Source: Flavivirga sp. 57AJ16 | Lineage (GTDB): Bacteria; Bacteroidota; Bacteroidia; Flavobacteriales; Flavobacteriaceae | NCBI RefSeq assembly: GCF_028736925.1 | Contig: NZ_JAQZAT010000001.1 | Location: forward strand, 248,001-312,000 | Length of the DNA stretch: 64,000 nt | Direction of reading: 5' to 3' | In this document: one piece after another, positions 1 through 22,742 of the stretch | Layout: every line of letters starts with the position of its first letter | How positions within the stretch are numbered: position 1 is the first letter of the stretch | Position numbers and translations under genes: made by a program | Notes under the pieces: model-generated | Seen by the model: the letters and a program-made list of their open reading frames with translations, nothing else | The model's database searches: none | What the model was told of the DNA's origin: nothing

Positions 1-54
1 CCTAACCCCCGAAAGGGGAACTTGCATCCCCCTAACCCCCGAAGGGGGAACTTG
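1..54 (+). repeat. Two tandem CCCCTAACCCC-type palindromic repeats at the right flank of the leuS insert
   Basis: Two copies (1-24 and 28-54) of a repeat with core CCTAACCCCCGAAGGGGGAA followed by CTTG lie head to tail. Each can form a short C-run/G-run hairpin with a GAA or GAAA loop. They are translated, on the minus strand, as part of leuS ([17 protein letters not shown]). A related copy sits at 13296-13327 between genes, and a diverged inverted copy at 484-517 bounds the other side of the insert. Confidence 0.8.
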
Positions 55-1383
55 CTCACTCTGCTGTAATTTGCTCGCCTCTAAATCACTCTGAATTGAT
101 TCTCTTTCTGCTAATTCCTTTTTTATATTTTCTAAAACACTTTCAATATTTCCCAAAACTTCTTCGTTTGTAAAACGGATAACTTTGTAGTAGTCATTTT
201 CAAGAATTTCTGTGCGTTTTGCATCTTCTTCTATTTGGGATTCATGGATTTTTCCATCAACTTCAATAATTAATCGCTTTTTTAAACATACAAAGTCAAC
301 AATATAGTCCCCTATTAAATGCTGTTGTCTAAATTTTGCTCCTAGATTTTTGTTTCTAAGCTGCTCCCATAATACTGCTTCCGCCTGAGTTGGATTAGCA
401 CGCATCTCTTTAGCTCGTTCCAATAATAAGTGTGAATTATTTCCCCCTGTCATATACCCCGCACGAGTATGCGTACCAGCTTTCTCTTCCCCTTGGGAGA
501 AGGGTAGGATGGGGAACTCTACTTGGGCCCCAACCGACTTTCCAATCCAATTACGTTGGCTTTCTTTTAAAGAATCTGTCCAATCAATAGTATCCAATCC
601 TTGAAGCAAGCGTTCTGCATAGGCAGAAATACGCATACTCCATTGGGTCATTTTTTTACGAATTACAGGATGCCCGCCACGTTCGGACACACCATTTACA
701 ATTTCGTCGTTTGCTAAAACAGTGCCTAATGCAGGACACCAGTTTACTTCTGTTTCCGCTAGGTATGTTAATCTATATTGTAATAATATTGTTTGTTGTT
801 TTTCAGGTGAAAACCCTTGCCATTCATCTGCAGAAAACAGTTCGACACCATCATCGCAAACTGCATTCACCTTTGTATTTCCTTCTGTTTCGAAAATGCT
901 TACTAAACCTGAAATATCTTCAGCTTTGTTAGTCTCATTATTATACCAGGATTCGAACAATTGAATAAAAATCCATTGTGTCCATTTGTAATAACTCGGA
1001 TCTGATGTTCTAACCTCTCGGGACCAATCGAACGAAAAACCTATTTGGTCTAACTGTCTACGATATGTTTTTATATTCTCAGCAGTTGTTACAGCAGGAT
1101 GCTGTCCTGTTTGAATGGCATATTGTTCTGCTGGCAAACCAAAACTATCATACCCTTGTGGATGCAGTACATTGAAGCCTTTATGACGTTTATAGCGTGC
1201 GTAAATATCTGAAGCAATATACCCTAGTGGATGTCCAACATGCAACCCAGCACCACTTGGGTAAGGAAACATATCTAACACATAATATTTTGGTTTTTCG
1301 CTATTATTAACAGCTTTAAACGTTTGGTTCTCTGCCCAGTACTTTTGCCATTTGGCTTCAATCTCGTTGAAATTGTATTTCAT
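1..1383 (-). CDS. leuS: Leucyl-tRNA synthetase, 5' part, with in-frame DUF559 nuclease-like insertion
   Basis: This gene charges tRNA-Leu with leucine in the cytoplasm. It starts at the ATG at 1383-1381 and runs off the left edge, so 461 residues are visible. The class I signature HVGH is at residues 48-51 in [15 protein letters not shown], followed by typical LeuRS sequence up to [13 protein letters not shown] (about 278-290), where the CP1 editing domain begins. Instead of continuing into the editing domain, the frame enters an extra segment. A repeat-derived stretch (about 290-301) is followed by a DUF559/Vsr-like PD-(D/E)xK domain (about 322-425; VDF, then EVDGKIHE) and a tail encoded by two copies of a CCCCTAACCCC repeat. 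The frame stays open to the window edge, so the rest of LeuRS should lie beyond it. A good -7 element is found 22 bp upstream. Identification of LeuRS is certain. Whether the insert is retained or removed in the mature enzyme cannot be seen. Confidence 0.95.
484..517 (-). repeat. Diverged, inverted copy of the CCCCTAACCCC repeat at the left flank of the leuS insert
   Basis: Read on the minus strand, this stretch has the order CCTACCC, CTCCCAAGGGGAA, which matches the repeat seen on the plus strand at 1-54 and 13296-13327 with several substitutions. It encodes residues about 290-300 of LeuRS. The two flanks of the DUF559 segment therefore carry the repeat in opposite orientation. Confidence 0.55.
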
Positions 1384-2778: not shown

Positions 2779-3654
2779 ATGAGCTCATCATTTGAAAAAC
2801 ATCAAAAACGCAGACTTATCTCATCTTACTTCTCAGTGGTATTAAGTATTGCTTTAGTACTGTTTTTATTGGGTTTATTGGGGATGTTGATTCTAAATGC
2901 CAAAAAGGTATCTGATCATTTTAAGGAACAGGTGGTTGTAACCATTTATTTAAAAGATTCTGCCAAAGAAGTTGAAACGAAGCAACTTGAAAAAAGTTTA
3001 GCGATGGCAGATTATGTAAAATCTACCGAATACGTATCTAAAGATCAGGCTGCCGAATTTATGAAAGCTGAAAACGGAGAGGATTTCATGGATTTTGTTG
3101 GCTATAACCCGTTACAAAATTCCATCGATGTTCATTTGAAAGCTGATTTTGTAACTTCTGAGCATTTAGAGAAAATCTCCGCGGAAGCATTGAACAAAAA
3201 TTTTGTTGACGAGGTAAACTACGATAATGACTTGGTTAATTTGATGAACGATAATGTAAAAAAGATTAGTTTTTGGGTGCTTATTATAAGTGCTATTTTC
3301 ACCTTAATTGCTGTTTTACTTATTAATAGTTCCATAAGGTTATCTGTTTACTCTAAGCGTTTTACTATTAAAACCATGCAAATGGTCGGTGCCACAAAAC
3401 AGTTTATTAGGCTTCCTTTTATTTGGAAAAGTGTTCGCTTGGGGATGATTGGAGCTGTTCTGGCATTAATAGGCATGGCCATTGTTTTATATTATCTTAA
3501 TAGAACATTTTTAGAACTGGAGTTATTAAGCAACCCTATTTTAATGGCCCTGTTATTTATTTTTGTTTTTGCTTTAGGCATCATTATTACATGGATAAGT
3601 ACACATTTTGCAACACAGCGTTTCTTGAACCTGAAAACAGATGAACTGTATTAA
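2779..3654 (+). CDS. ftsX: Cell division protein FtsX
   Basis: This 291-residue protein is the membrane subunit of the FtsEX complex, which in other bacteria couples cell division to activation of peptidoglycan hydrolases. A short cytoplasmic N-terminus precedes the first membrane segment (about 20-40). An extracytoplasmic domain (about 45-165) and three more membrane helices follow, with the family sequence KTMQMVGATKQFIRLPF before helix three. The length is normal for Bacteroidota FtsX. The ATPase gene ftsE is not in this window. It is followed by the DUF3098 gene, uppP and truB on the same strand, an order commonly kept in Flavobacteriia, so these envelope genes may be co-expressed. Confidence 0.93.
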   Translation: MSSSFEKHQKRRLISSYFSVVLSIALVLFLLGLLGMLILNAKKVSDHFKEQVVVTIYLKDSAKEVETKQLEKSLAMADYVKSTEYVSKDQAAEFMKAENGEDFMDFVGYNPLQNSIDVHLKADFVTSEHLEKISAEALNKNFVDEVNYDNDLVNLMNDNVKKISFWVLIISAIFTLIAVLLINSSIRLSVYSKRFTIKTMQMVGATKQFIRLPFIWKSVRLGMIGAVLALIGMAIVLYYLNRTFLELELLSNPILMALLFIFVFALGIIITWISTHFATQRFLNLKTDELY

Positions 3655-3730
3655 CAATAACATGGATTAAATTTAGATGCTCTTAACATAAAAGTTTTAA
3701 ATAAAACAGTTACTTTGCACTTAGCTAAAA

Positions 3731-3753
3731 CCCTTGGAGGTGCAAACCTCCAG
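3731..3753. repeat. Short hairpin between ftsX and the DUF3098 gene
   Basis: TTGGAGGT, a short loop and ACCTCCA form a stem of seven to eight base pairs. It has no T-run, so it is not a convincing terminator and could be a processing or regulatory hairpin in the leader of the DUF3098 gene. Confidence 0.35.
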
Positions 3754-3808
3754 ATATGTTTCGCAAATAGACCATTTAAAAGGATATTATAACTGAATCT
3801 AATTAGTT

Positions 3809-4060
3809 ATGGGAGAAAAAAAACGAAAAGAAGAGACTAAAAGTATATTTGTTTTTGGAAAGAAAAACTATAAATTTATGTTTATTGGTTTAGCTTGTCT
3901 TGCTTTGGGCTTTATTTTAATGGCTGGCGGTGGCAGCGACGATCCCAATGTTTTTAATCCTGAAATCTTTCACTGGAGACGTATAAGACTTGCTCCTGCC
4001 ATTATTCTAATTGGATTTGGTATTGAGATTTATGCTATTTTATTAAATCCTGATAAATAA
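3809..4060 (+). CDS. DUF3098 family small membrane protein
   Basis: This 83-residue protein has a charged N-terminus (GEKKRKEETK) and two predicted membrane helices (about 23-40 and 60-78). They are separated by a short loop with GGGSDDPNVFNPEIFHWRRI. This pattern fits the DUF3098 family, found almost only in Bacteroidota and of unknown function. It lies between ftsX and uppP, 52 bp before uppP, which suggests an envelope-related role by association only. The ATG at 3809 is the only reasonable start. Confidence 0.82.
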   Translation: MGEKKRKEETKSIFVFGKKNYKFMFIGLACLALGFILMAGGGSDDPNVFNPEIFHWRRIRLAPAIILIGFGIEIYAILLNPDK

Positions 4061-4111
4061 AATTTAAAACTTTCTAAGTTTAGCTATTCCAATTTTAATA
4101 TTTTTGCGCCC

Positions 4112-4906
4112 ATGGATATAATCGATGCAATTATTTTAGGTATTATTCAAGGGCTTACCGAGTTTTTACCTGTATCATCAAGCGGTCATTTAGAGCTAGG
4201 AAAAGCCATTCTTGGAGACAACTCAATTCCCGAAGAAAGTTTATTATTTACAGTAGTACTCCACTTTGCCACAGCTTTAAGTACTATGGTTGTTTTTAGA
4301 AAAGATATTTTGGATCTTATTAAAGGAACCCTAAAATTTGAATGGAATGAAGATTTACAATTCGTTTCAAAAATTATAGTATCTATGGTACCTGCCGTTA
4401 TTGTAGGGTTATTTTTTGAAGAACAATTGGAACAACTTTTTGGAAACAATATTTTACTGGTAGGTTGTATGCTGATCATAACAGCTATTTTGCTTTTTTT
4501 AGCAGACAAAGCCAAGGACACTAATAAAAAAGTATCTTTTAAAAACGCCTTTATTATTGGAGTTTCTCAAGCTGTCGCTATGCTGCCAGGTATTTCACGC
4601 TCTGGGGCCACTATTTCAACGTCCGTACTATTAGGAAACGATAAAACAAAAGCGGCCCGCTTTTCCTTTTTAATGGTCGTACCCCTAATTTTCGGTAAAA
4701 TTGCCAAAGATATTTTTAGTGGTGATTTAACTTATAATAGTGGAAACTTTACCTCACTATCTATTGGCTTTATTGCTGCCTTTATTGCTGGGTTATTCGC
4801 TTGTACTTGGATGATTTCTTTGGTAAAAAAGAGCAAGTTAAGTTACTTTGCCATTTACTGTATTATTGTTGGTATTATTGCCATTGCATTTTCATTATTA
4901 AATTAA
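4112..4906 (+). CDS. uppP: Undecaprenyl-diphosphate phosphatase
   Basis: UppP (BacA) removes a phosphate from undecaprenyl diphosphate to recycle the lipid carrier for peptidoglycan and other polymers, and gives bacitracin tolerance. The 264-residue protein is mostly membrane-spanning. It has both family signatures: GLTEFLPVSSSGHLE (residues 14-28, with the catalytic-region Glu, Ser and His) and LPGISRSGATIS (about 155-167). A TATTTTTG box at 4100-4107 immediately before the ATG suggests a very short or absent leader. truB starts only 4 bp after the stop, so the two are probably co-transcribed. Confidence 0.96.
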   Translation: MDIIDAIILGIIQGLTEFLPVSSSGHLELGKAILGDNSIPEESLLFTVVLHFATALSTMVVFRKDILDLIKGTLKFEWNEDLQFVSKIIVSMVPAVIVGLFFEEQLEQLFGNNILLVGCMLIITAILLFLADKAKDTNKKVSFKNAFIIGVSQAVAMLPGISRSGATISTSVLLGNDKTKAARFSFLMVVPLIFGKIAKDIFSGDLTYNSGNFTSLSIGFIAAFIAGLFACTWMISLVKKSKLSYFAIYCIIVGIIAIAFSLLN

Positions 4907-4910
4907 TAGG

Positions 4911-5630
4911 ATGATTACGAAAGAGGACTATCTTTCTGGACAGGTCTTGTTAATAGACAAACCTTTAAACTGGACTTCCTTTCAAGTGGTCAATAAATTG
5001 CGTTGGGAAATCCGGCAAGCTTTCAACATTAAAAAAATAAAAGTAGGGCATGCTGGGACTCTTGACCCTCTAGCGACAGGGTTATTGGTTATTTGTACGG
5101 GTAAAATGACCAAGCAGATCGATACCTTTCAAGGACAAGCTAAAGAATATACAGGAACTATTGTTTTGGGCAGTACAACACCGTCTTATGATTTAGAAAC
5201 TGAAATTAACGAAACATTCCCTACTGGTCATATTACCGAAGCATCCGTGCTTGCTACAACGAAACAATTTATTGGGGATATTCAACAATATCCACCTGTT
5301 TTTTCTGCATTAAAAAAAGACGGGAAGCGATTATACGAATTTGCCAGAGCTGGCGAAACCGTTGAAATAAAACCAAGAACCGTGCATATTTCGGAATTCG
5401 AAATTACAAAAATTGATACTTCGGCCGCGCTCAGTACTGGCTCGATAAATATTGATTTTAGAGTGGTTTGTAGTAAAGGCACTTACATTCGTTCTTTAGC
5501 AAACGATTTTGGCAAAGCATTAAATTCTGGAGCACACTTATCTGTGCTAAGACGCACTAAAATTGGTGATTTCCATGTTGATAATTCGGTTACTATTGAA
5601 AATTTCATCAAGAATCTTGATTCGGAATAA
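4911..5630 (+). CDS. truB: tRNA pseudouridine(55) synthase TruB
   Basis: TruB makes pseudouridine 55 in the T-loop of most tRNAs. The 239-residue protein has motif II VGHAGTLDPLATGLL with catalytic Asp52, the substrate-loop PPVFSALKKDGKRLYEFARAGE and the KGTYIRSLANDFG motif. The length is that of the short form common in Bacteroidota, with little of the C-terminal PUA region found in E. coli. It follows uppP by 4 bp. Confidence 0.96.
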   Translation: MITKEDYLSGQVLLIDKPLNWTSFQVVNKLRWEIRQAFNIKKIKVGHAGTLDPLATGLLVICTGKMTKQIDTFQGQAKEYTGTIVLGSTTPSYDLETEINETFPTGHITEASVLATTKQFIGDIQQYPPVFSALKKDGKRLYEFARAGETVEIKPRTVHISEFEITKIDTSAALSTGSINIDFRVVCSKGTYIRSLANDFGKALNSGAHLSVLRRTKIGDFHVDNSVTIENFIKNLDSE

Positions 5631-5807
5631 TTATTGATAGTTACTTAGCAAGAAAATAGTTTAGACATAAAATCTTATAAAAACAATAAATTATTAATAC
5701 TTTTCTTATTTATTTATGCTGTTTTAAACTTTTTACTGCATTTTATCGTATATAAAGTGTATTTTGCCGTATATTACATTGAATAACTCTCAAGGATTAG
5801 ACACGAT

Positions 5808-13295: not shown

Positions 13296-13327
13296 ACCTC
13301 CCCTAACCCCTCCAAAGGAGGGGAATT
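13296..13327 (+). repeat. Intergenic CCCCTAACCCC palindromic repeat
   Basis: CCTCC, CCTAACCCCT and CCAAAGGAGGGGAATTG form a hairpin with stem CCCCTCC/GGAGGGG. It is the stand-alone form of the repeat that bounds the DUF559 insert in leuS. It lies between two convergent genes and could also help end transcription. Confidence 0.7.
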
Positions 13328-22265: not shown

Positions 22266-22742
22266 ATGTCCTATGAAGATAAGAAAATAAAAGTCCCTAG
22301 ATTCAATGAAGCATCTGGGTTTTATACCACAAAGAAACGCTCTAAAATAATGAGCAGGATCCGTGGTAAAAACACCAAGCCCGAAATGCTCTTTCGCAAA
22401 ACACTTTGGAAAAAGGGCGTTCGGTACAGAGTGGATAACAAACAACTTCCCGGACGGCCAGATGTAAGCATAAAAAAATATAAGCTTGCTATTTTTATCG
22501 ATGGCGAATACTGGCACGGTTATAATTGGCATGAGCGTAAGGACAAGTTAAAAACAAATCGTGATTTTTGGATTCCTAAGATCGAAAGAAATATGCAACG
22601 CGACAGGGAAGTCAACCAACAATTAAAAGATATGGGGTATACCGTATTTCGATTTTGGGCTTACGAAATAAAAGACAATCTAAAAACCTGTATCAATGAT
22701 GTTATGGTATATTTAGATATTGAAAAGTTTAAAATTTATTAA
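22266..22742 (+). CDS. vsr: Vsr-like very short patch repair endonuclease, solitary
   Basis: Vsr nicks DNA next to T:G mismatches that arise by deamination of 5-methylcytosine. The 158-residue protein matches the family: RSKIMSRIRGKNTKPEMLFRK, LPGRPDVSIKKYKLAIFIDG, EYWHGYNW, KTNRDFWIPKIERNMQRDREV and YTVFRFWAYEI. The catalytic-region Asp (GRPD) and the His of YWHG are present. No cytosine methyltransferase is in this window, although Vsr is normally paired with one. The ATG at 22266 is the natural start. Confidence 0.9.
   Translation: MSYEDKKIKVPRFNEASGFYTTKKRSKIMSRIRGKNTKPEMLFRKTLWKKGVRYRVDNKQLPGRPDVSIKKYKLAIFIDGEYWHGYNWHERKDKLKTNRDFWIPKIERNMQRDREVNQQLKDMGYTVFRFWAYEIKDNLKTCINDVMVYLDIEKFKIY

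What the first reader, a model, noticed from the sequence alone, without database searches (positions are those of the whole stretch)
1..517. DUF559/Vsr-like nuclease domain inserted in frame inside the LeuRS editing domain and bounded by inverted copies of a genomic repeat
Seen: leuS reads normally up to [13 protein letters not shown]. It then passes, without a stop, through a repeat-derived linker, a PD-(D/E)xK DUF559 domain ([11 protein letters not shown]) and two CCCCTAACCCC repeats. The repeat at 484-517 is in the opposite orientation to those at 1-54. The same repeat occurs alone at 13296-13327. Established: DUF559 proteins are Vsr-type nucleases, the CP1 domain edits mischarged tRNA, and REP repeats flanking a transposase (RAYT) are a known mobile design. 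Inference: the insert could be a mobile repeat-plus-nuclease unit that tolerates landing in frame in an essential gene, or a domain that modifies LeuRS. No intein motifs were seen.
Basis: partly seen in the sequence, partly recalled or inferred. Interest (0 to 1): 0.92.

Follow-up and report, generated by a model that had tools for sequence, protein, structure and literature searches.

The report
Unspliced mobile nuclease inside housekeeping enzymes
A small DNA-cutting domain, bounded by hairpin repeats, sits in frame inside an essential enzyme of a marine-type bacterium and, in related bacteria, inside many other enzymes, and looks like a jumping gene that stays in the finished protein instead of being cut out.

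Summary
The single leuS is one open frame of 1126 codons; it runs through a DUF559 (Vsr-like PD-(D/E)XK) domain bounded by inverted GC-rich palindromes and resumes at VFTTRPDT. It is neither disrupted nor uniformly ancestral: both sampled congeners have only a short loop there, and 177 of 243 Flavobacteriaceae leuS matches are in one piece.
The phenomenon is larger. The same DUF559 subfamily lies in frame in RecG (this genome too), MetH (up to two copies per gene), IleRS, ValRS, a second LeuRS site, a UvrD-like helicase, HsdR, an N6-methylase, HisD and others. Two copies in one metH are homologous exactly from palindrome to palindrome. Strong hairpins with outward heads flank 75 of 111 copies versus 0 of 918 control positions. 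Insert and LeuRS trees conflict. Catalytic residues are intact in 107 of 107 copies scored, and damaged in two LeuRS relics. The nearest solved folds are an endonuclease-like protein and the homing endonuclease I-Bth0305I. No intein domain was found.
Best reading: an unspliced, translated, homing-like mobile element with REP-like ends. Mobility is well supported; cleavage is inferred.

The parts
1..1383 (-). 5' part of leuS (leucine--tRNA ligase) with the insert; the gene continues beyond position 1 (1126 codons counted from the TTG at 1407; ATG at 1383)
   Evidence: NCBIfam leuS_bact E 4.2e-268
1..516 (-). mobile element: palindrome, DUF559 domain, palindrome; its far end lies a few bases beyond position 1
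   Evidence: filled versus unfilled LeuRS
484..517 (-). palindromic end on the leuS N-terminal side, encoding [11 protein letters not shown]; head CCATCCTACCC outward, hairpin inward
29..54 (-). palindromic end on the leuS C-terminal side, inner copy, encoding VPPSGVRGM
1..24 (-). tandem second copy of the same palindromic end, encoding VPLSGVRG; runs off the window by a few bases
112..420 (-). DUF559 (PF04480) PD-(D/E)XK nuclease domain with intact VDF and EVDGKIH motifs
   Evidence: AlphaFold2 model with pLDDT above 90 over most of the domain
13302..13321 (+). solo copy of the same repeat type, apparently intergenic

Best explanation
The insert is a copy of a mobile element of roughly 400-600 bp. 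Its two ends are REP-like palindromes in inverted orientation, and its only gene is a Vsr-fold DUF559 nuclease with no stop and no conserved start of its own, so that it can be translated as an extra domain of the gene it lands in. It survives where it lands sense, in frame and in a tolerant loop, such as the CP1 loop of LeuRS. The nuclease, carried as a side domain of the host enzyme, most likely cuts or nicks unoccupied sites, and repair from the occupied copy then spreads the element: homing without splicing. A copy may later decay into an inert domain. SHOWN by sequence: in-frame layout, palindromic ends, several host genes and sites, patchy occupancy, tree conflict, conserved catalytic residues, low dN/dS in the closest pairs, two damaged copies. 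INFERRED: DNA cleavage, the copying step, and that the full fusion protein is the mature form.
For: Single intact leuS with the insert. Same subfamily in frame in RecG of this genome and in MetH, a class-I synthetase (IleRS by motif), HsdR, an N6-methylase, a UvrD-like helicase, DegT, Acs and HisD (Pfam), and in ValRS by motif. Two metH copies homologous over 418 nt, ending at the palindromes. Hairpins above the 95th control percentile with both heads outward in 75 of 111 embedded copies versus 0 of 918 controls; inverted sequence match above the 99th percentile in 47 of 111. Within one genus LeuRS, RecG and IleRS occupancy all differ. Occupancy needs 21 changes on the LeuRS tree, at least 7 forced. 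AU test rejects the LeuRS topology for the insert (delta lnL 466) and the reverse (849). D56, E67, D69, H73 intact in 107 of 107 copies scored. Profile and fold match homing endonuclease I-Bth0305I. In a LeuRS model the domain (317-426) lies between strands 282-292 and 442-447, joined by low-confidence linkers.
Against: No cleavage, mobility or proteomic data. 36 of 111 copies fail the combined hairpin test and 64 of 111 the inverted-match test. Most sites cluster in the domain tree, so long vertical persistence is also common, and only 21 of 143 inner branches are well supported; the paired metH copies lie in the same unresolved fork but are not resolved as sisters. Insert and backbone identities correlate (r 0.61). 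Native loop residues are replaced and no target-site duplication was seen by eye. 104 of 107 copies have a Met near the domain start and 13 of these an SD-like tetramer before it, so separate translation of the nuclease is not excluded.
Confidence: 0.7

Rival explanations
1. REPtron-like transposition: the nuclease acts on the hairpin ends themselves, as RAYTs act on REPs, and moves the element to arbitrary sites; the shared host sites merely reflect which loops tolerate insertion. (This overlaps with the best explanation in that the element is mobile; the two odds are not exclusive.)
For: Conserved outward hairpins; solo palindromes and an inverted pair elsewhere in this genome; solo palindromes in frame at LeuS2 and MetH2, where other species have full elements; other repeat-like peptides also sit in the CP1 loop.
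Against: No HuH tyrosine transposase domain; the fold is Vsr/I-Bth0305I-like. Arrivals at the same few sites recur in distant taxa, which a target-recognising nuclease explains more simply.
Confidence: 0.35
2. Functional accessory domain: DUF559 was recruited to LeuRS and other enzymes to help them.
For: Conservation of the catalytic residues, low dN/dS in the closest pairs, persistence in clades.
Against: Hosts have no evident common function; occupancy is patchy even within a genus; two LeuRS keep a damaged domain; insert and host trees conflict.
Confidence: 0.07
3. Ordinary vertical inheritance of an old insertion with many losses.
For: Insert and backbone identities correlate (r 0.61); site clades exist.
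Against: AU rejection both ways; in eight listed pairs backbones 84-90% identical carry inserts 50-57% identical.
Confidence: 0.08
4. Degenerate or novel intein.
For: In frame in conserved genes, with a homing-type nuclease.
Against: No Hint or intein match in the insert at E up to 0.1, whereas the same search gives intein-splicing and Hint matches (below the curated cut-offs) in L072, an intein-like protein with a Vsr-like nuclease. In 18 of 55 LeuRS copies that end in ..RG the next residue is I; the exact boundary is uncertain in the others.
Confidence: 0.03

Closest known systems
EDxHD (Vsr-like) homing endonucleases, e.g. I-Bth0305I
   Same: Vsr-type catalytic fold (Foldseek E 1.8e-4, profile E 3.9e-7); patchy occupancy of conserved genes
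   Different: The known ones are borne by introns or inteins or are free-standing (PMC3943268, passages; in part recalled); here the domain lies in the host enzyme's frame without a splicing element and is bounded by palindromes
REP/RAYT elements (REPtrons, REPINs)
   Same: ORF bounded by inverted hairpin repeats that also occur alone in the genome
   Different: The ORF is a PD-(D/E)XK nuclease, not a HuH tyrosine transposase, and lies in frame inside host genes
Rickettsia palindromic elements and other intragenic REPs
   Same: Palindromic DNA in frame in housekeeping genes and read as peptide; solo copies are present in this leuS
   Different: Those are short and carry no gene (recalled; intragenic REPs in passages of PMC3733652); here the palindromes frame a nuclease domain
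SPOUT methyltransferase-DUF559 fusions in Alphaproteobacteria (PMC1829167)
   Same: DUF559 fused to a housekeeping-type enzyme; a frame with SPOUT-type motifs is also fused here in a Prevotella record (L227, by motif)
   Different: Noted there as a fusion of unknown purpose; no palindromes or mobility in the one passage seen

Membership tests
DUF559 / Vsr-like PD-(D/E)XK nucleases | Pfam PF04480 match with catalytic D and ExD...H motifs | tested here: met
   PF04480 E 1e-36; motif residues present in the window copy and in 107 of 107 embedded copies scored
Homing endonuclease element | Nuclease related to a proven homing endonuclease | tested here: met
   3r3p I-Bth0305I: profile E 3.9e-7, Foldseek E 1.8e-4
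Homing endonuclease element | Occupancy not explained by host phylogeny | tested here: met
Homing endonuclease element | Cleavage of the empty allele and conversion to the filled one | not testable with these tools
   needs biochemistry
Intein | Hint splicing domain | tested here: not met
   no match in the insert at E up to 0.1; sub-cut-off matches (best E 2.2e-6) in the comparison protein L072
Intein | C/S/T as first residue after the insert | tested here: inconclusive
   I follows ..RG in 18 of 55 LeuRS copies; boundary uncertain in the rest
REP/RAYT REPtron | ORF bounded by inverted REP-like hairpins | tested here: met
   75 of 111 versus 0 of 918 controls on the combined test; window copy by inspection
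REP/RAYT REPtron | HuH tyrosine transposase | tested here: not met
   only nuclease-type matches of note in the insert (DUF559, MTES_1575)
REP/RAYT REPtron | GTAG or CGTC tag at the repeat end | not tested
   observed head is CCTARCC-like; no formal test
Rickettsia palindromic element | palindrome read in frame in the ORF | tested here: met
   leuS solo copies and element ends; presence in the mature protein not tested

The most novel reading that the evidence does not exclude
A separate class of mobile element: translated, unspliced, hairpin-ended nuclease cassettes that live as lasting domains of essential enzymes across Bacteroidota and occasionally beyond, spread by homing between alleles and by ectopic jumps between loops of different genes, and leave peptide scars and decayed domains that shape protein evolution.
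Probability: 0.5. Interest if true: 0.95.

Novelty: new variant of a known kind. Interest (0 to 1): 0.87.

Why it matters
Homing nucleases inside conserved genes usually ride in a self-splicing intron or intein. Here a homing-type nuclease appears to do so unspliced, as a domain of aminoacyl-tRNA synthetases, RecG and methionine synthase. If true, it adds a route by which mobile DNA creates new protein domains, gives a candidate function to part of a widespread family of unknown function, and provides natural insertion sites that mark where essential enzymes tolerate a domain of about 115 residues.

Tried and rejected
Rejected: frame break or second leuS; intein; RAYT-type transposase; LeuRS-specific function. 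A viral or plasmid vehicle was looked for and not found: the viral-contig scan gave 24 relatives, of which 8 were read: one in-frame ValRS-like copy on a contig labelled viral, the rest in frames of 147-304 aa. 39 plasmid records hold relatives, best places all under 60% identical, 15 listed. I looked by eye for a target-site duplication at filled and empty sites and saw none; the native loop is replaced. The first end test, plain inverted sequence match, was weaker (47 of 111), as the arms differ in sequence while keeping the hairpin; the second used hairpins and head bias and was designed after seeing the first. dN/dS: 0.08-0.18 for the six lowest-dS pairs, 0.70 for the seventh (L193/L195), median 0.31 over 805 partly saturated pairs. 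Left out of the catalytic count: L071 and L073 (damaged, shown apart), L069, L072, the broken L070, and domains scoring under 60. Literature: no paper linking DUF559 with in-frame mobility was found. One search lists all 14 held papers with the word DUF559; I saw passages of two of them and the listing of the rest. Passages were seen of PMC12907096, PMC1829167, PMC3943268 and PMC3733652; no paper was read whole, and many journals are not held.

Full report
WHAT IS THERE. The window lies at G000:C1:248001-312000 of a 4.9 Mb genome of 52 contigs. The leuS gene runs on the minus strand off the left edge. Its continuation (L005) shows one open frame of 1126 codons that passes through the insert and resumes at VFTTRPDTIFG. 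The N-terminal query finds one leuS; three other hits are weak. The insert lies between ...[10 protein letters not shown] and ISVFTTRPDT and holds a DUF559 domain (E 1e-36). Two further repeat-encoded peptides lie in frame in the same gene, SSPLGRLGGALELNT and SSPPSEGLGEAS.

OTHER COPIES IN THIS GENOME. PF04480 has four hits here: the leuS insert; an in-frame insert in RecG between LWKK and PPHILVMTATPIPRT; a stand-alone 120-aa ORF; and a weak hit in a Vsr-like gene in this window.

OTHER GENOMES. In 249 Flavobacteriaceae genomes 119 have a PF04480 hit (the list of matches is cut). Of the 150 rows listed, 50 lie in open frames of 280 aa or more; in a Bacteroidota sample of 345 genomes, which overlaps the first, it is 47 of 149 listed rows (such frames include N- and C-terminal fusions). 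At least 20 of the 249 carry DUF559 in frame in leuS, two of them damaged; G112, a 64%-complete draft, has a broken copy. Eight have it in RecG. Of those 80, 75 extend more than 160 aa before or 100 aa behind the domain. Pfam supports these hosts: LeuRS, RecG, a UvrD-like helicase (AddA-like, recalled), HsdR, an N6-methylase, DegT, acetyl-CoA synthetase, a class-I synthetase (IleRS by motif), MetH and HisD. ValRS, a second LeuRS site, further MetH sites, HemD and fusions to IspF, Gmk, RNase H and a SPOUT methyltransferase were assigned by motifs that I recall. Embedded copies also lie in records labelled Spirochaetia, Paceibacterota (LeuRS by motif) and Anaerolineales, all metagenome-assembled.

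ENDS OF THE UNIT. Two copies in one metH (L021) align over 418 nt with 345 identities, and the homology starts and stops at AGCCCCCC... and ...GGGGGGCT, the outer ends of the palindromes. A second record (L206) also has two metH copies. In the tree each pair lies in one unresolved fork with a few relatives. Among 111 embedded copies of the subfamily (four of them N-terminal fusions, seven identical or nearly so to others across collections) 94 have a hairpin at both ends above the 95th percentile of 918 control positions from the same loci and 91 above the 99th; 83 have both heads biased outward (0.9% of controls); 75 exceed the 95th percentile and have both heads outward, against 0 of 918. 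A simpler test of inverted sequence similarity is met by 47 of 111 at the 99th percentile.

MOVEMENT. In the tree of 153 domains the host sites cluster (30 changes over 24 labels, minimum 23, shuffled mean 87); RecG and AddA-like copies each form one group; well-supported branches force at least two changes for IleRS and for MetH2 (21 of 143 inner branches starred). On a tree of 108 LeuRS backbones the insert needs 21 changes, at least 7 forced (the unfilled rows were those nearest to our LeuRS, not a random draw). For 45 of 49 LeuRS with an insert (two damaged and two long-branch rows dropped) the insert alignment rejects the backbone tree (delta lnL 466, AU p 4e-45) and the reverse (849, p 2e-5); eight listed pairs with backbones 84-90% identical have inserts 50-57% identical, so the same site has been filled by different lineages. 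Within this genus the LeuRS insert is absent from G248 and G019; the RecG insert is present in G248 but absent from G019; the IleRS insert is present in G248 but absent here. The correlation of insert and backbone identities (0.61) shows that vertical persistence also plays a part.

STATE OF THE NUCLEASE. D56, E67, D69 and H73 are intact in 107 of 107 embedded copies scored (exclusions in Tried and rejected). Two LeuRS (L071, L073) keep a domain with part of these motifs damaged and without the palindrome-encoded peptides, and L195 has a further weak relic in LeuRS. The six lowest-dS pairs have dN/dS of 0.08-0.18. The predicted fold of the insert (mean pLDDT 82.6) has two Foldseek matches below E 0.001: the endonuclease-like protein 3hrl and the homing endonuclease I-Bth0305I; a sequence profile puts the same two on top. 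In a model of a relative's LeuRS (L148, 1170 aa, mean pLDDT 78.1, pTM 0.65) the domain's helices and strands (317-426) lie between strands 282-292 and 442-447, with low-confidence linkers at 296-314 and 431-440; the top 50 Foldseek matches listed are all LeuRS structures. That this is the tip of a CP1 hairpin is my inference from the strands; I did not inspect coordinates.

THE SITE. The CP1 loop is permissive. Of 243 genomes with a match, 177 match in one piece and 66 in two or more (counted by hand). Of 30 two-piece loci fetched, 28 could be read: their NWIG-to-TTRPDT stretch is 35-70 aa against 31 in the commonest form, and several hold peptides that look repeat-encoded (ASEAKQS, HAELVEA, QVQHDK types; by eye, not tested). 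G019 has a perfect palindrome there. Solo palindromes sit at LeuS2 and MetH2, where other species have the full element. Whether solo copies are landing pads or remnants is open.

MECHANISM. I read this as a homing-like element without splicing: palindromic ends plus a Vsr-fold nuclease that is translated inside its host. Retention in the mature protein, cleavage and copying are inference. [quoted passage not shown] here that association is missing. PMC3733652 (passages) describes REPs inside genes and REP-flanked tyrosine transposases, the nearest precedents for the two halves of this design. PMC1829167 (one passage) noted a SPOUT-DUF559 fusion. PMC12907096 (passages) studies a DUF559-containing Vsr-like protein of Caulobacter as a putative mismatch nuclease.

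LIMITS. 

Noticed in passing
window 22266-22742 (+): A Vsr-like very-short-patch repair endonuclease gene (name by recall), a distant relative of the insert with a weak PF04480 match.
   Followed up: partly
L072 (G125:C1:232300-240500), frame 3566-5716 (-): An intein-like protein with a Vsr/DUF559-type nuclease and sub-cut-off intein and Hint matches: the spliced counterpart of the same nuclease fold.
   Followed up: partly
L118-L147, LeuRS CP1 loop: Several kinds of short, repeat-looking peptides lie in frame at the same LeuRS loop in different genera (28 of 30 loci read; judged by eye).
   Followed up: partly
L006 1300-2000 and L079: Stand-alone DUF559 genes flanked by direct copies of another two-hairpin repeat (CCTTCCCTTnnTAAGGGAAGGTGG...GACGGAAGGGT); 15 of 24 stand-alone copies exceed the 99th percentile of controls in the direct-repeat test.
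   Followed up: partly
L289/L290 (G000:C3:92785-92941): Two copies of the palindrome in inverted orientation about 115-135 bp apart with no nuclease gene between: a REPIN-like mini-element.
   Followed up: no
L004 (G000:C2:142585): A palindrome in frame near the start of a 232-aa frame that looks siroheme-synthase-like (name recalled, not searched).
   Followed up: no
L195, LeuRS frame residues 805-891: A second, decayed DUF559-like relic at another LeuRS position (HMM score 19.9).
   Followed up: no
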